From DATDCY01 sp031406795 [NCBI: Candidatus Rokuibacteriota bacterium] (GTDB lineage Bacteria; JAUVQV01): a stretch of 15,199 nt of DNA. The notes beneath the pieces are model-generated. The model did no database searches. It saw only the letters and a program-made list of their open reading frames with translations, and was not told where the DNA came from. Where the stretch lies: assembly GCA_031406795.1 (NCBI GenBank), contig JANOHV010000257.1, forward strand, positions 1-15,199. Direction: 5' to 3'. Shown one piece after another: positions 6,120-15,199 of the stretch. Numbering within the stretch: position 1 is the stretch's first letter; each line of letters begins with the position of its first letter. A program made the position numbers and the translations under genes.

Positions 6120-7585
6120 GCGCGGCCGTGTCGATCGCCGGGTTGATGGAAACCAGCGGCGTCGGTTTTGGCACCAGCGGCGCCCGAGGGCTGGCGCAGG
6201 CGATGACCGACCGGGTCTGCTACGCCTACACCGCGGGTTTTCTCGCCTATCTGTCCGGGCGCGGCGAGATCGCCGCCGGGGACCGGGTGGCGCTCGCCGG
6301 GGACTTGCGGCCGTCGACGCCGCGGATCATGCGCGCCTGCTCGCGGGCGATCCGCGACAGCGGCTTCATGCCCGTGAACTGCGGCTTCATCCCGACCCCG
6401 GCCGTGACAAGCTGGGCGATGGGGGAGGGTCTGGCCAGCATCATGGTCACCGGCAGCCACATTCCGGACGACCGCAACGGCATCAAGTTCAACCGCCCGG
6501 CGGGGGAGATCCTCAAGGGGGACGAGCCGGGGATCATGGCGCAGGCGCCCGACGTGCCCGATGGGTTCGACGCCGCGGGCGCGCTGCTCGCCCCGGGGGA
6601 ACTGCCGCCGGTTTCGTCGCGGGCGCGCGCCGCCTACGTCGCGCGCTACCTGGACTTTCTTCCCGCGGGATCGCTGAGCGGTCGGCGGATCGCCATCTAC
6701 GAGCATTCCAGCGTCGCCCGGGAGATCCTGTCCGAGATTCTCTCGGGGCTCGGCGCCGAGGTGCTGCGGCTGGGACGCACGGAACGCTTCATCCCGGTCG
6801 ACACCGAGGCGGTGCGGCCGGAGGACGAGGCCCTCGCGCGCGACTGGGCGCGGGAGCACGGTTTCTTCGCAATCTGCTCGGCCGACGGCGACGGGGACCG
6901 GCCCCTCGTGGGCGACGAGGGGGGCGCATTCCTGCGCGGCGACGTGGCGGGCATCCTCACCGCCGGCTGGCTGAAGGCAGACACGGTCGTGACGCCGGTC
7001 TCCAGCAACACGGCGGTGGAGCGCTGCGGCTGGTTCGAGCGCGTCGAGCGCACTCGCATCGGTTCTCCCTACGTGATCGCCGGGATGCTGGCCGCGCCCG
7101 GCGCCCGGGTGGTCGGCTACGAGGCCAACGGCGGGTTTCTCACCCGGCACGAGATTCTGCGGGACGGTCGCCGTCTCGCCGCGTTGCCCACGCGGGATGC
7201 CGTCATCGTCGCGCTGGCCCTGCTGCTGTTCGCGGGAGAGCGGGGGGTGCCGCTGTCGGGGCTCACCGGCCTGCTGCCGCGGCGCTTCACGGCGAGCGAC
7301 CGCCTCAAGGATTTTCCCACGGCGCTCTCCAGCGCGCGCATCGGGGCGCTGCGCGAAGGGGGCGTGGCCGCGGTGACGGCCGCCTTCGGCGCGGAATTCG
7401 GCGAGGCGCGATCGTTGGACGACACCGACGGACTGCGGATCACCTTCGCCAGCGGGGAGGTCGTCCACCTGCGCCCCTCCGGTAACGCTCCGGAGTTGCG
7501 CTGCTACACCGAGGCCGACGGCCCGCAGCGCGCGGCGGAGATGAACCGCCGCTGCCTGGAAATCCTCGCCGCCTGGCGCGACTAG
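6116..7585 (+). CDS. Phosphomannomutase/phosphoglucomutase family enzyme
   Basis: The 489-residue alpha-D-phosphohexomutase has all four hallmark sites: the phosphoserine loop [12 protein letters not shown] with S114, the metal site ADGDGDRP with D257, D259 and D261, the sugar-recognition loop YEANGGF with E336, and the phosphate-binding [10 protein letters not shown] starting at R453. It interconverts hexose-6-phosphate and hexose-1-phosphate, feeding GDP-mannose or UDP-/dTDP-glucose synthesis. The glycine-rich YEANGG loop is of the mannose/glucose mutase type rather than the GlmM phosphoglucosamine type, but mannose versus glucose preference cannot be settled by eye. The GTG start overlaps the rfbD stop (GTGA), so it is coupled to that gene. 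Its TAG stop interlocks with the stop of the facing decarboxylase gene. Next to rfbD, its product could also supply glucose-1-phosphate for dTDP-sugar synthesis. Confidence 0.9.
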
Positions 7586-8523
7586 ATCGCCTGGCGGAAG
7601 TACTCGATCGTCTTCTTCAGGCCCTCGGCGAGTTGCGTCTTCGGCTCCCAGTCGAGCTCGCGCTTGGCCAGCGAGATGTCGGGCCGGCGCTGCCGCGGGT
7701 CGTCCCCGGGCAGGGGCTTGAAGCAGATGGTGCTGCCGCTGGCGGGGATCATCTGCAGGACGCGCTCGGCCAGCTGGCGGATCGTGAACTCGACCGGGTT
7801 GCCGAGATTGACCGGGCCGACGAACCCCTGCCCGTTGTTCATCATGCGGACCATGCCCTCGACCAGGTCGTCGATGTACTGGAAGCTGCGCGTCTGGGAG
7901 CCGTCGCCGTAGATCGTCAGATCCTCGTTGCGCAGCGCCTGGACGATGAAGTTCGAAACCACCCGGCCGTCGTTGGGGTGCATGTTCGGCCCGTAGGTGT
8001 TGAAGATGCGCACGACGCGGATGTCGACCCTGTTCTGCCGGTGGTAGTCGAAGCACAACGTCTCGGCGCAGCGCTTCCCCTCGTCGTAGCAGGAGCGGAT
8101 GCCGATCGGGTTGACGCGGCCCCAGTACGACTCGGGCTGGGGGTGCACCTCGGGGTCGCCGTAGACCTCGGAGGTGGACGCCTGGAGGATGCGGGCCTTG
8201 ATGCGCTTGGCCAGTCCGAGCATGTTGATCGCGCCGTGCACCGAGGTCTTGGTCGTCGCCACCGGGTCGTGCTGGTAGTGGATCGGCGAGGCCGGGCAGG
8301 CCAGGTTGTAGATCTGGTCGACCTCCACGTAGAGGGGGAACGTCACGTCGTGCCGGATCAGCTCGAAGCGCTTGTTGTCGAGCAGCGGCAGGATGTTGTT
8401 CTTGTTCCCGGTGAAGAAGTTGTCGAGGCAGAGCACCTCGTGCCCCTCCTCGAGCAGCCGCCGCGACAGGTGCGAGCCGATGAACCCGGCCCCCCCCGTG
8501 ATGAGCACCCTTTTCAAACCCAT
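7582..8523 (-). CDS. uxs: UDP-glucuronate decarboxylase (UDP-xylose synthase)
   Basis: The 313-residue extended short-chain dehydrogenase converts UDP-glucuronate to UDP-xylose with tightly bound NAD, in the cytoplasm. It carries the NAD motif [10 protein letters not shown] at 9-18, the family hallmark [13 protein letters not shown] at 72-84, the STSEVYGDP block at 116-124, the catalytic Y146/K150 pair in SCYDEGKR, and FNTYGPNM and RRPDIS further on. [10 protein letters not shown] separates it from UDP-glucose epimerases and dTDP-glucose dehydratases. The ATG at 8523 is chosen because GGGAGGGG lies 5 bases before it; an in-frame TTG at 8541 lies upstream of that binding site. It faces the glycosyltransferase operon and shares a CTAG with the mutase stop. 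It has its own strong promoter candidate. Length and motifs are full, with no sign of damage. Confidence 0.95.
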
Positions 8524-8528
8524 GACCA

Positions 8529-8536
8529 CCCCTCCC
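8529..8536 (-). promoter_or_regulatory. Ribosome binding site deciding the uxs start
   Basis: GGGAGGGG on the minus strand is followed by TGGTC and then the ATG at 8523. It lies inside the longer reading frame that would begin at TTG 8541, which argues for the shorter protein. Confidence 0.7.
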
Positions 8537-8570
8537 GGCAACCGCGGCGTTGGCGCACGAAACTCGGTGC

Positions 8571-8599
8571 ATTTAAGGGCTTTCGCGGTGGTTTGTCAA
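8571..8599 (-). promoter_or_regulatory. Sigma-70-type promoter candidate for the UDP-glucuronate decarboxylase gene
   Basis: On the minus strand, a perfect -35 hexamer TTGACA (8599-8594) is followed by exactly 17 bases and TTAAAT (8576-8571), 4 of 6 matches to the -10 consensus. Transcription would start near 8564, giving a leader of about 40 bases to the ATG. The -35 hexamer overlaps the outer end of the inverted-repeat element at 8597-8839. Confidence 0.7.
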
Positions 8600-8839
8600 A
8601 GCGGCGCGGCGCACCCAGATCCGCGCGTACGCGCGGATCCAGCAGCAGAGGAGGCATTTCAACCGTCGAAAAAGCAGGATTTCTAGCAGAAAGTACGGTG
8701 TGGCAGAGGTCAAGCATCGCTCGAAGCATCCATTGCGATCAGATATGAGCAACGACCTGGCTAAACCGGACCAGGTGACAAGCCTGGCTCTCCTGATCCG
8801 CGCGTTACGCGCGGATTTGGGGCGCACCGCGCCGCTTGC
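8597..8839. repeat. MITE-like inverted-repeat element with palindromic arms
   Basis: Two imperfect inverted arms, 8597-8642 and 8793-8839, enclose a 150-base core. Each outer end reads CCGCGCCGC outward, and each arm contains a palindrome: a perfect 22-base one at 8618-8639 centred on GCGCGTACGCGC, and a 21-base one at 8796-8816 with a single unpaired centre base. The core has about 53% GC by hand count (79 of 150), clearly below its neighbours, and holds a perfect 6-bp hairpin, ACCTGG (8755-8760) with CCAGGT (8771-8776). No transposase or convincing ORF is inside and no clear target-site duplication was seen. It could be a miniature transposable element or a structured RNA; mobility is inferred from its form only. 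It makes up most of the 412-base gap between the two divergent genes. Confidence 0.6.
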
Positions 8840-8863
8840 GGCGGCCCCGGCGCGTGCTACACT
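8836..8863 (+). promoter_or_regulatory. Extended -10 promoter candidate for ychJ
   Basis: TTGCGG (8836-8841), 16 bases, then TACACT (8858-8863), which is preceded by TG one base upstream in the extended -10 arrangement. The -10 matches consensus at 4 of 6 positions and the -35 at 3 of 6. The TTG of the -35 begins in the outer end of the inverted-repeat element. The leader to the ychJ ATG would be about 65 bases. Confidence 0.4.
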
Positions 8864-8935
8864 TACGCAAAGTAGCCGGCAGCCCCGCCATGGCGCGGCG
8901 GGCGCCGGCGCGGCAATCATGGCGAGGAGTCAGGC

Positions 8936-9424
8936 ATGAAATCGTGTCCGTGCGGTTCGGAACTGTCCTACGAGGAGTGCTGCCGTCCCCTGATCAAAGG
9001 CCGGCGCAAGGCCGCGACGGCCGAGCAGTTGATGCGCTCGCGCTACAGCGCCTACGTCGAGAAGGAGATCCCGTATCTCCGCGCGTCGCTGCACCCGGAT
9101 CACCGGAACGACTACGACGAGAAGGCCAGCCGGGATTGGGCCGAGAGCGCCGAGTGGCACTCCCTGCAGATCCTGAACTCCGTCGGCGGCGGTCCCGACG
9201 ACAGCGAGGGGCAGGTCGAGTTCGTCGTCACGTTCACCCAGAAGGACGTCCGGCAGGAACACCACGAACTGTCCACGTTCGCCCGCGAAGGCGGCAAGTG
9301 GTATTTCGTCAACGGCAAAGAAGTGAAGGCCAAGCCGGTGGTCCGCGCGGAACCCAAGGTCGGGCGCAACGATCCCTGCCCCTGCGGCAGCGGCAAGAAG
9401 CACAAGAAGTGCTGCGGGGTCTGA
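8936..9424 (+). CDS. ychJ: YchJ family protein with SEC-C zinc motifs at both ends
   Basis: The 162-residue protein has a SEC-C motif at each end: C4, C6, C15, C16 and C148, C150, C159, C160 ([14 protein letters not shown]). Between them is the NTF2-like YchJ domain, with RSRYSAY at 34-40, EWHSL near 73 and the KWYFVNG strand at 121-127. SEC-C motifs bind zinc and, in SecA, the SecB chaperone or ribosome; the job of stand-alone YchJ proteins is not established, and a role near translation or protein handling is inference. The start is clear: GAGGAG ends 6 bases before the ATG. The nitroreductase gene begins 3 bases after the stop, so the two are probably cotranscribed from the promoter near 8836-8863. 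Length is normal for the family. Confidence 0.9.
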
Positions 9425-12345: not shown

Positions 12346-12374
12346 ATTGTGCGGACTCGCGGCCCGGCAGTCAA
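12346..12374 (-). promoter_or_regulatory. Sigma-70-type promoter candidate for alaA, within an inverted repeat
   Basis: On the minus strand, TTGACT (12374-12369), a 17-base spacer and CACAAT (12351-12346) give 5 of 6 and 4 of 6 consensus matches with ideal spacing; the leader would be about 55-60 bases. The -35 hexamer is one arm of a perfect inverted repeat, AGTCAA (12369-12374) and TTGACT (12384-12389), 9 bases apart. The second arm is a -35-like hexamer facing the other gene, but its -10 (GACACT) is poor. Confidence 0.45.
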
Positions 12375-12533
12375 CGGGCAACATTGACTTTCGCCTGCGG
12401 CGGCCGGACACTGGTCTCGGCGAAGGGCCCGGCGTGCTCGCCGGAAATCAGCACGACGGATCCGCCGTCGCCGTGGCGGCCACGGAATTTCTCGTGAGCC
12501 ATGCTCGCCGTCATCGGCCCACGGCGCTTCGTT

Positions 12534-12552
12534 GCCGGTCGTTTCGACCGGC
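12534..12552. promoter_or_regulatory. Perfect 19-base palindrome before the exported-protein gene
   Basis: GCCGGTCG (12534-12541) and CGACCGGC (12545-12552) pair perfectly around a TTT loop, ending 10 bases before the AGAGGAGG ribosome binding site at 12563-12570. It may be a 5' leader hairpin or a regulator's operator; the sequence alone does not separate these. Confidence 0.4.
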
Positions 12553-12574
12553 CCCTTCATGCAGAGGAGGACGT

Positions 12575-13108
12575 ATGAACAAGAGCGGATTCGTATTTCT
12601 CATGGCGGTACTGGCCGCCTTCGGCGCGGTAGTCGCGCCGGGAGTGTCATCGGCGCAGGTTGACGTGAACATCGAGGTCAGGCTGCCCCTGCCCCCGCTA
12701 CCCCCGCTGCCTCGCTTCGTGTTCGCTGCGCCGCCGACCGTGGTCGTGGTGCCTGAGACCTACGTGTACGTCGTTCCGGATGCCGAAGTCGACATCGTCT
12801 TCTACCAGGGTTACTGGTATCGGCCGCATGGTGAGCGCTGGTACCGTTCGGCCGGCTACAACGGTCCCTGGAAGCTGCTGAGGGCGGCGCAGGTGCCGAG
12901 CACCTTCGGGATACTTCCCCCCGGGTTCCGCAGCGTGGAACCGGAGCGGGAGCGCATCCCGTATCAGAAGGTGAAGAAAAGCTGGAAACAGTGGGAGAAG
13001 GAACGCTACTGGGACTCGCGCCGGAATGGGCGCGACGAAAATGGGCGGCACGAAGGTGAGCGACACGATCGGCCCGGGCGCGCCAAAGGGAAGGGCCACG
13101 ACAAGTAA
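12575..13108 (+). CDS. Exported protein of unknown function with YQGYWYRP...RWYR motif
   Basis: The 177-residue protein opens with a signal peptide (hydrophobic core 6-20, likely cleavage after SSA at 27), so it is exported. Next comes a proline-rich stretch (LPLPPLPPLP, 37-46), a valine/tyrosine-rich region (55-75), and a compact aromatic motif FYQGYWYRPHGERWYR at 76-91 followed by YNGPW. From about 119 it is highly charged, with IPYQKVKKSWKQWEKERYW and then an Arg/Lys/His/Glu-rich, likely disordered tail. I recall similar hypothetical exported proteins in Geobacter-like deltaproteobacteria, with no known function. The ATG is 4 bases after AGAGGAGG. A palindrome precedes it and a hairpin follows it. 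The basic tail could bind anionic surfaces such as polysaccharide or nucleic acid, but this is speculation. Confidence 0.82.
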   Translation: MNKSGFVFLMAVLAAFGAVVAPGVSSAQVDVNIEVRLPLPPLPPLPRFVFAAPPTVVVVPETYVYVVPDAEVDIVFYQGYWYRPHGERWYRSAGYNGPWKLLRAAQVPSTFGILPPGFRSVEPERERIPYQKVKKSWKQWEKERYWDSRRNGRDENGRHEGERHDRPGRAKGKGHDK

Positions 13109-13164: not shown

Positions 13165-14700
13165 CTACATCGGGCCGTCCATCTCCATGATGTCCCAGAC
13201 GCCCATCATGCCGATGTCCTCGTGCTCGATGATGTGGCAGTGGAACATCGCCATGCCCGGCCAGTGCATGACCGGCATGAGCATCCGCACGCTCCCCCAC
13301 TTCGGGATGATGACCGTGTCCTTCCACGCCGGCGCCCTGGTCAGGAACGAGGCGTAGGCCGCGTCCCCGCCGGTGATCGAGAGCACCTGGCAGGGATTGA
13401 CGTGCTGGTGGAAGGGGTGGTCCATGCCGCTGTTGTTCACGATCTCCCAGACCTCGTGGGTCCCGAGCTGCGAGTGCAGCGTGTAGTGATTCTCCATGGT
13501 GAAGGAAATGCCGTTGACGTACCCGCGGCCCCGGCCCATCGAGAGCGTGATCCGCTCGGTCTTCACGGGCGCGGCCGTGCTGCGCCGGGCCGCCGGATCG
13601 ATCGTCTTCGGAATGGCCTCGCCGGCGCTGCCCCCCTGATACGACAGCGTCAGCAGCGTGACCTGCTGGCCCATGCTGCCGCCTCCCCGACTGTAGGGCA
13701 GTGATAGCAGCCGGTAGTTCTTCGCGGTCTGCGTGGCCTTCACGAGGAGATCGACCCGCTCACCGGGCGATAGCAGGAAGGAGGAGACGGGGTACGGCTT
13801 GTCGAGGAGGCCGCCCTCGGTTCCGACGACCTGCAGGGTGTGACCCCCCTCGAGGCTCAGCTTCAGGAACCGGGCGTTGCAGGCGTTCAGGACGCGCCAG
13901 CGCTGCACCTGCCCCGGCCGGATGGGGAGCACGGGGTTGACCTGGCCGTTGACCATCACCGTGGTGCCTTCCTTGCCGTGCATGTAGTCCATCGCGGAGG
14001 TGTAGGGCTGGGGTTCGGACCCGCTCAGGGTGATGTCCTTTACGACCATCAGATGCGTCTCGAAGGCGGAGAGCGCGCCGATTTCGTCCTCGATGACCAG
14101 TGCGCCGGCCATTCCCCCCCAATACTGCTCGGCAACCGTGCCGTGGTGGTGGGGGTGGTAGAAATTGAGGGTCCCCGGCGTCTGCAGCGTGAGGTCGTAC
14201 TCGTAGTCGAACTGCTCGCCGGCCATGAACATCAGCATGGCATTGTCGGCGTTTCCGGAAGGCGAAACATGCAGCCCGTGGGTGTGGAGGTTGGTCATCT
14301 CCCGCTCGTGGCCGAGGATGTTCGTGCCCCCCATCGGCAGCGAGTTCGTGAAATGGACCTTCAGCAGGTCCCCCCGCCGGGCGCGGATCGTCGGCGCCGG
14401 GTAGGCGCCGTTGTAGGTCAGTAGTTGTGCGTTGATTCCGTTGACGTACACCCAGGCCGGCGCTGCCTCGAGATCGACCTCGACGACTCCGGCGACGGTG
14501 CTCAGGTTCGTCATCTCGACCGGATCCGCGAACGCGGCGCCCGGCGGCGGGTTGATGACGCTCGTGCCTCCGCCCCCCATTCCCCCGCCGCCGCCCCCCA
14601 TCATCTGGGCGAACGCAGGTCCGCTCGCGAAACCGGCAGAGACACCGGCGGCGCCGATGGTGAGTCCTCTCAAGAACTGGCGTCTGGTGACTCTCTTCAT
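13165..14700 (-). CDS. Tat-exported multicopper oxidase
   Basis: The 511-residue protein begins with a twin-arginine signal (RRQFLRG at 6-12, hydrophobic stretch 13-30, cleavage near AFA31), so it is folded before export to the periplasm. A Gly/Met-rich linker (33-45) follows. All copper-binding clusters are present: HTH at 139-141, HPHHHG at 182-187, HPFHQH at 428-433 and HCHIIEHEDIGMM at 487-499. These give a type 1 site (H428, C488, H493, M498) and a trinuclear type 2/3 site, so the enzyme should be able to reduce O2 to water while oxidising metal ions or phenolics. Substrate is unknown; copper or manganese oxidation and copper detoxification are possible. The ATG at 14700 follows GGAG by 6 bases. 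A second multicopper oxidase lies just upstream on the same strand. Confidence 0.93.
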   Translation of the reverse strand: MKRVTRRQFLRGLTIGAAGVSAGFASGPAFAQMMGGGGGGMGGGGTSVINPPPGAAFADPVEMTNLSTVAGVVEVDLEAAPAWVYVNGINAQLLTYNGAYPAPTIRARRGDLLKVHFTNSLPMGGTNILGHEREMTNLHTHGLHVSPSGNADNAMLMFMAGEQFDYEYDLTLQTPGTLNFYHPHHHGTVAEQYWGGMAGALVIEDEIGALSAFETHLMVVKDITLSGSEPQPYTSAMDYMHGKEGTTVMVNGQVNPVLPIRPGQVQRWRVLNACNARFLKLSLEGGHTLQVVGTEGGLLDKPYPVSSFLLSPGERVDLLVKATQTAKNYRLLSLPYSRGGGSMGQQVTLLTLSYQGGSAGEAIPKTIDPAARRSTAAPVKTERITLSMGRGRGYVNGISFTMENHYTLHSQLGTHEVWEIVNNSGMDHPFHQHVNPCQVLSITGGDAAYASFLTRAPAWKDTVIIPKWGSVRMLMPVMHWPGMAMFHCHIIEHEDIGMMGVWDIMEMDGPM

Positions 14701-14847: not shown

Positions 14848-15199
14848 TCAGGGAATGCAGTTGCCCGCCAGGTCCACCGTGCCGACGCAGTACGGCCGCA
14901 TCATCTCGTTGTCCTCATGCGAGAGGATGTGGCAGTGCCACAGATACAGGCCCGCGAGGTCGTACACCGCCTTGACCCTGGTCACCCCGCCGGGGTAGAC
15001 GATGACCGTGTCCTTGAAGCCGGTCTCCCCGGGTTCTGGGGGAGTGACCGTGCCGGTCAGCATGTCCGTGCGGTCGATGACCTGGAACATCACGAGGTGG
15101 AGGTGGATCGGGTGGGCGTCGACCGTGAAGTTGTTGATCTCCCAGATCTCCGTGCTGCCGAAGGCCGGGGTTTCCGTGATCGGGTCCATGAAGTTCATC
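14848..15199 (-). CDS. Multicopper oxidase, C-terminal part only (CotA/bilirubin oxidase-like)
   Basis: Only the last 116 or so residues lie in the window; the rest is beyond its end. They form the third cupredoxin domain: TEIWEINNFTVDAHPIHLHL with the HPIHLH copper cluster, FKDTVIVYPG, and the final HCHILSHEDNEMMRPY block with the type 1 Cys, His and Met ligands. MDPITETP...TEIWEI and HPIHLHLVMFQV are typical of the CotA/bilirubin oxidase branch, so this is a different subtype from the downstream neighbour, whose cluster reads HPFHQH. Two cysteines after the last copper motif (in RPYCVGTVDLAGNC) could form a disulfide at the exported C-terminus. It ends with TGA at 14848-14850 and a hairpin terminator. 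Export signal and N-terminal copper sites cannot be checked. Confidence 0.88.
   Translation of the reverse strand, partial: MNFMDPITETPAFGSTEIWEINNFTVDAHPIHLHLVMFQVIDRTDMLTGTVTPPEPGETGFKDTVIVYPGGVTRVKAVYDLAGLYLWHCHILSHEDNEMMRPYCVGTVDLAGNCIP

What the first reader, a model, noticed from the sequence alone, without database searches (positions are those of the whole stretch)
8597..8839. MITE-like element with palindromic inverted arms and a low-GC core
Imperfect inverted arms of 46-47 bases each contain their own 21-22 base palindrome, so every arm can fold alone or the arms can pair with each other. The core is about 53% GC by hand count, far below its surroundings, has further hairpins, and no credible gene. 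This double-level symmetry fits a non-autonomous mobile element or a structured RNA.
Basis: partly seen in the sequence, partly recalled or inferred. Interest (0 to 1): 0.6.

Follow-up and report, generated by a model that had tools for sequence, protein, structure and literature searches.

The report
Lone inverted-repeat element between two genes
A 239-base stretch between two bacterial genes has mirror-image ends, each holding a palindrome, around a GC-poor middle; it looks like a small non-autonomous jumping element, but no second copy could be found and its own genome was not available to check.

Summary
At 8599-8837 two inverted arms (about 46 bases well matched, 61-62 with a weak inner part) flank a GC-poor core (52.3% against 68.2%). 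Each arm holds the same 21-22 base palindrome. The arm pair beats all 200 shuffles (score 32, shuffle maximum 27). It lies between two divergent genes, an NAD-epimerase and a YchJ/SEC-C gene, with no credible gene, Rfam match or terminator inside.

What it is stays open. Size, inverted ends, core and intergenic site fit a MITE-like non-autonomous element. Against that, no flanking direct repeat of 5-9 bases was found and no second copy turned up in any collection searched. The missing copies are weak evidence: the window's own genome is not held, the relatives found are distant, and the DNA searches had no positive control. A good sigma-70-like promoter match (10 of 12) begins at the left arm's first base and points outward. 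REP/REPIN tags and attC sites were looked for and not found. A pair of operator palindromes and a local inverted duplication are the main rivals. Ordinary unless copies or an empty site are found.

The parts
8599..8660 (+). left arm; well matched to about 8643, weak inner part to 8660
8618..8639 (.). perfect 22-nt palindrome in the left arm
8661..8776 (.). GC-poor core with no credible gene
   Evidence: the GC minimum of the window overlaps it; two ORFs that cross it (8700-8939 plus, 8573-8920 minus) have no Pfam match at E up to 1; the minus one lacks the third-position GC of the real genes
8777..8837 (-). right arm, inverted relative to the left
8796..8816 (.). 21-nt palindrome in the right arm, one-base centre
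8571..8599 (-). outward sigma-70-like promoter match TTGACA-17-TTAAAT ahead of the epimerase gene; its first base is the first base of the left arm
   Evidence: 10 of 12 consensus bases; 13 of 1000 shuffles of the intergenic region hold one as good; not listed by the stricter scan
8836..8863 (+). weak outward promoter-like site TTGCGG-16-TACACT with TG before the second hexamer, ahead of YchJ
   Evidence: read by eye, 7 of 12; below the threshold of 8, so not significant
7582..8523 (-). NAD-dependent epimerase/dehydratase, left neighbour (UDP-glucuronate decarboxylase-like; that finer name is recalled)
   Evidence: Pfam Epimerase and GDP_Man_Dehyd
8936..9424 (+). YchJ-type protein with SEC-C motif, right neighbour
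   Evidence: Pfam YchJ_M-like and SEC-C

Best explanation
A MITE-like, non-autonomous element of about 239 bp, inserted between two divergent genes. Its inverted ends would be bound and cut by a transposase encoded elsewhere in the (unheld) genome; the palindrome in each end would be that enzyme's recognition or hairpin site. Its left end now supplies the first base(s) of the -35 box of the epimerase promoter. Shown: arms, palindromes, GC-poor core, no credible gene, intergenic site, promoter match abutting the left end. Inferred: mobility, the partner transposase, any effect on transcription.
For: Inverted ends beyond chance. Length and layout like described prokaryotic MITEs (under 500 bp, intergenic, stable stem-loop; section 2.1 of PMC10969869 read; a figure legend of the same paper gives Coxiella QMITE2 a 113-145 bp core). 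The GC minimum of the window lies on the core. A good outward promoter match begins at the left end, as outward promoters are reported for MITEAba12 (abstract and passages of PMC6382973). Other inverted-arm stretches of 179-278 bp occur in held loci L062, L117 and L160, the last two from genomes of the G001 family; whether these are mobile was not tested.
Against: No second copy in any search made. No direct repeat of 5-9 bases at the ends; only GCGG (4 bases), in two placements with the left end shifted by 6; repeats under 4 bases were not sought. Arms are longer and GC-rich (72-76%), where prokaryotic MITEs are described as typically AT-rich with TIRs of about 4-30 bp. No autonomous partner seen. 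Scored as one self-complementary stretch it is not significant (9 of 200 shuffles).
Confidence: 0.45

Rival explanations
1. A divergent control region: the two palindromes are operator sites for one dimeric regulator, each centred about 64 bases upstream of the inferred start of one of the two divergent genes, where class I activators often sit (recalled).
For: Palindrome centres 8628.5 and 8806 lie about 64 bases from inferred starts (about 8564 and 8870) placed 7 bases past the promoter-like sites (for the left one, by eye for the right one); the palindrome is the best-kept zone of the arms, 20 of 22 columns.
Against: The matching outer zone (17 of 20) and the GC-poor core are not explained by two operators; the right promoter match is only 7 of 12; the starts are inferred, not mapped; the palindrome was in 0 of 399 genomes of the order of G001.
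Confidence: 0.25
2. A local inverted duplication, for example by template switching at a palindrome, without mobility or function.
For: Single copy in all data searched; no direct repeat of 5-9 bases; the palindrome itself could seed such an event (inference); similarity is weakest in the inner zone (14 of 22).
Against: Does not explain why the left arm ends at the promoter match or why the core is the GC minimum of the window.
Confidence: 0.2
3. A structured RNA of about 240 nt with a long terminal stem.
For: Very stable predicted fold on both strands, z about -9.
Against: Stability follows from inverted arms of any origin and is about equal on both strands; no Rfam match at gathering score and three matches far below their cut-offs with E 0.62-2.1; no terminator-like site in the element; the good promoter match points outward; no relative was found, so covariation could not be tested.
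Confidence: 0.07

Closest known systems
Prokaryotic MITEs (e.g. Coxiella QMITE2, Acinetobacter MITEAba12, Neisseria Correia elements)
   Same: Length, inverted ends, no gene, intergenic, stable stem-loop, promoter match at an end (features of the known ones)
   Different: No direct repeat of 5-9 bases, no second copy found, arms longer and GC-rich, each arm carrying its own palindrome
REP dimers / REPINs
   Same: Two palindromes in inverted arrangement with a spacer, able to fold alone or together
   Different: No GTAG or CGTC tag next to either palindrome; 156 nt between the palindromes, where most REP dimer spacers are 20-100 bp
Integron attC sites
   Same: Imperfectly self-complementary whole
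   Different: No GTTRRRY core site in 8561-8880 on either strand (motif recalled)

Membership tests
MITE | terminal inverted repeats | tested here: met
   longer than the 4-30 bp quoted
MITE | length under 500 bp and no transposase gene | tested here: met
   239 bp; two ORFs crossing the core have no Pfam match; the other short overlapping ORFs were not scanned
MITE | flanking direct repeats (in younger copies; said to wane with age) | tested here: not met
   ends shifted by up to 6 bases each way, repeats of 4-9 bases sought; only GCGG, 4 bases, in two placements
MITE | several copies in the genome | tested here: inconclusive
   own genome not held; no copy seen in other species
MITE | ends shared with an autonomous insertion sequence | tested here: inconclusive
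   exact arm pattern in 0 stretches of the 84,980-species genome set and 0 of the viral contigs; a diverged partner would be missed
REP / REPIN | GTAG or CGTC tetranucleotide at one end of the palindrome | tested here: not met
   within 8561-8880 GTAG/CTAC only at 8872 and 8857, CGTC only at 8664, none adjacent to a palindrome; GGAG at 8650 and CTCC at 8790 lie at unequal distances from the palindromes
REP / REPIN | high copy number and a RAYT gene | not testable with these tools
   own genome not held
Rfam RNA family | score above a family's gathering cut-off | tested here: not met
   0 matches in the window
attC site | GTTRRRY / RYYYAAC core sites (recalled) | tested here: not met
   none in 8561-8880

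The most novel reading that the evidence does not exclude
A lineage-restricted family of palindrome-tipped mobile elements whose two ends each complete an outward -35 box, so that one insertion rewires both divergent neighbours, with the palindromes extruding as cruciforms to couple the two promoters to supercoiling.
Probability: 0.07. Interest if true: 0.45.

Novelty: new member of a known kind. Interest (0 to 1): 0.18.

Why it matters
If mobile, it would be one more small element that sets promoters of neighbouring genes, in what looks like an uncultured proteobacterium. On present evidence it changes no general picture.

Tried and rejected
Copies by sequence: blastn hits in 17 of 399 genomes of the order were at most 58 bases long, and only 2 candidates per genome were scored there. 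Aligned one by one, they cover pieces of an arm or 31-36 nt spanning the core's end. I read frames for 7 of the 17 and the surroundings of an eighth, L131: each of these 8 lies within an open frame of 164 codons or more in some frame, so I took them as chance; in GC-rich DNA long open frames are common, so this is an argument, not proof. The other 9, the 4 weak matches in 3 of 22 family genomes and the single 39-nt plasmid match were not followed up. An 18-base outer-arm pattern had 10 stretches in viral contigs; by eye the bases next to each show no such palindrome, so rejected. No DNA search had a genome known to match as a positive control (the tool says so).

Synteny: the window's genes were sought in loci L001-L119, L137-L158, L171-L183 and L198-L205; none shows the epimerase (70% or more identical) next to YchJ, so no empty site could be read. 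L172 has a 27%-identical epimerase-family gene upstream of YchJ on the same strand, too distant to use. Loci L120-L136, L159-L170 and L184-L197 were not tested for this. A small ORF in the core (start at 8748) was considered after partial hits to that part and dropped: no Pfam match at E up to 1.

Placing the organism: the aminotransferase points towards the family of G001 (77-82% in the 19 of 22 genomes with a full-length match). In the order, 9 of 300 genomes pass E 1e-225, best 81%; in the class of G006, 2 of 140 pass E 1e-215, at 75 and 76%. YchJ disagrees: 40-49% in 12 of 22 genomes of the G001 family but 56% in G759, which has no aminotransferase match at E 1e-150. The lineage stays unsettled.

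Flawed tests: could not see the window's own element because BLAST reported it as one self-complementary hit; one search showed that measure is not selective (9 of 200 shuffles reach it); one search replaced it. The zero-in-200-shuffles controls are circular, since the patterns were taken from the element.

Full report
What is there. Between an epimerase gene on the minus strand (7582-8523) and a YchJ/SEC-C gene on the plus strand (8936-9424; families from Pfam) lies a 412-base gap. In it, 8599-8660 and 8777-8837 are inverted copies of each other. Column by column the outer zone is 17 of 20 identical, the palindrome zone 20 of 22 and the inner zone 14 of 22. The left arm holds a perfect 22-base palindrome and the right a 21-base one with a one-base centre. 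The core 8644-8794 is 52.3% GC; the window is 68.2% and the arms 72-76%. Eleven of about 15,048 stretches of 151 bases are as low as the core, and the lowest (51.7%) starts at 8647.

Is it more than chance? Yes for the arm pair: score 32 against a shuffle mean of 21.0 and maximum of 27 (0 of 200 at 30 or more). Both strands fold far better than their shuffles (z -9.17 and -9.00, 0 of 200). A single palindrome of this size is less remarkable (arms of 10 or more in 25 of 200 shuffled windows), and scored as one self-complementary stretch the element is not significant (9 of 200 shuffles).

No credible gene and no known RNA. Eleven ORFs of 20 aa or more overlap 8530-8940, the two neighbours included. 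Two that cross the core were given to Pfam (8700-8939 plus, also from an inner start at 8748, and 8573-8920 minus) and had no match at E up to 1; the others were not scanned. The 115-aa minus ORF has GC of 0.57/0.63/0.70 at the three codon positions, unlike six real genes of the window with 0.87-0.98 at the third. Rfam gave nothing at gathering score and three matches far below cut-off otherwise. ARAGORN found no tRNA. The two terminator-like sites of the region lie outside the element.

Promoters. On the minus strand TTGACA-17-TTAAAT (10 of 12) starts at base 8599, the first base of the left arm, and reads outward to the epimerase; 13 of 1000 shuffled intergenic regions hold a site as good. 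The tool scan found no promoter-like site; it demands an A at the second position of the -10 box, which this one lacks. On the right, TTGCGG-16-TACACT with an extended -10 is visible by eye, but only 7 of 12. If both were used, the palindromes would be centred about 64 bases upstream of both starts; this is inference.

Search for copies. The exact arm pattern (26 fixed or two-fold positions) had 0 stretches in the 84,980-species genome set and 0 in viral contigs. The palindrome alone had 0 in viral contigs and was in 0 of 399 genomes of the order of G001. Blastn with the element gave weak pieces in 17 of 399 genomes (2 candidates scored per genome), in 3 of 22 family genomes, in 0 of 4, one 39-base plasmid match and no phage match. 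Eight of the 17 were looked at more closely and lie in open frames; the other 9 were only aligned. All this says little about the organism itself: its genome is not held, the nearest genomes found are distant (aminotransferase at most 82% full-length; YchJ 40-49% in the same family), and the searches lacked a positive control.

Similar things elsewhere. A self-comparison of the 171 records then held, the window included (1.56 Mb), showed other inverted-arm stretches of like size: L062 10023-10288, L160 2823-3100 and L117 88-266. They suggest, without a chance control or a test of mobility, that small inverted-arm elements are ordinary in such genomes. Blastn with the element gave no match in L062 or L117, nor in the genome of L160, G188.

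Reading. The anatomy best fits a MITE-like element (0.45). It is not filed as a MITE: the direct-repeat feature was tested and not met, though it is said to wane with age (PMC10969869, section 2.1), and copy number could not be tested. Two operators (0.25) or a local inverted duplication (0.2) remain open. REP/REPIN and attC membership fail on their defining tags (REP definition from passages of PMC3733652; attC motif recalled). The left palindrome's sequence was in none of the held papers (one search).

Noticed in passing
L160:2823-3100 (genome G188): MITE-like stretch: 37-bp inverted ends (86%) with the motif GGAACCTCTGATTAAGTCAAAC, 206 bp apart, the inside folding into further long hairpins.
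   Followed up: partly
L062:10023-10288: MITE-like stretch: 43-bp inverted ends (91%) beginning TCCACAGATGAACGCAGATAAACACAGATAA around a 181-bp spacer.
   Followed up: partly
L117:88-266 (genome G151): AT-rich inverted-arm stretch, 35-bp ends, with an inner hairpin carrying GGAACCGCTGA, resembling the motif in L160.
   Followed up: no
window 13165-14700 and 14848-15198: Two multicopper oxidase genes in tandem on the minus strand, the second reaching the window's end.
   Followed up: no
window, whole length: GTAG (either strand) occurs 96 times against 38 expected from shuffles, mostly on the strand opposite to genes; probably codon use (CTAC for tyrosine), not REP tags.
   Followed up: no
window 12347-13108: 253-aa open frame without a Pfam match, possibly spurious in this GC-rich DNA.
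   Followed up: no
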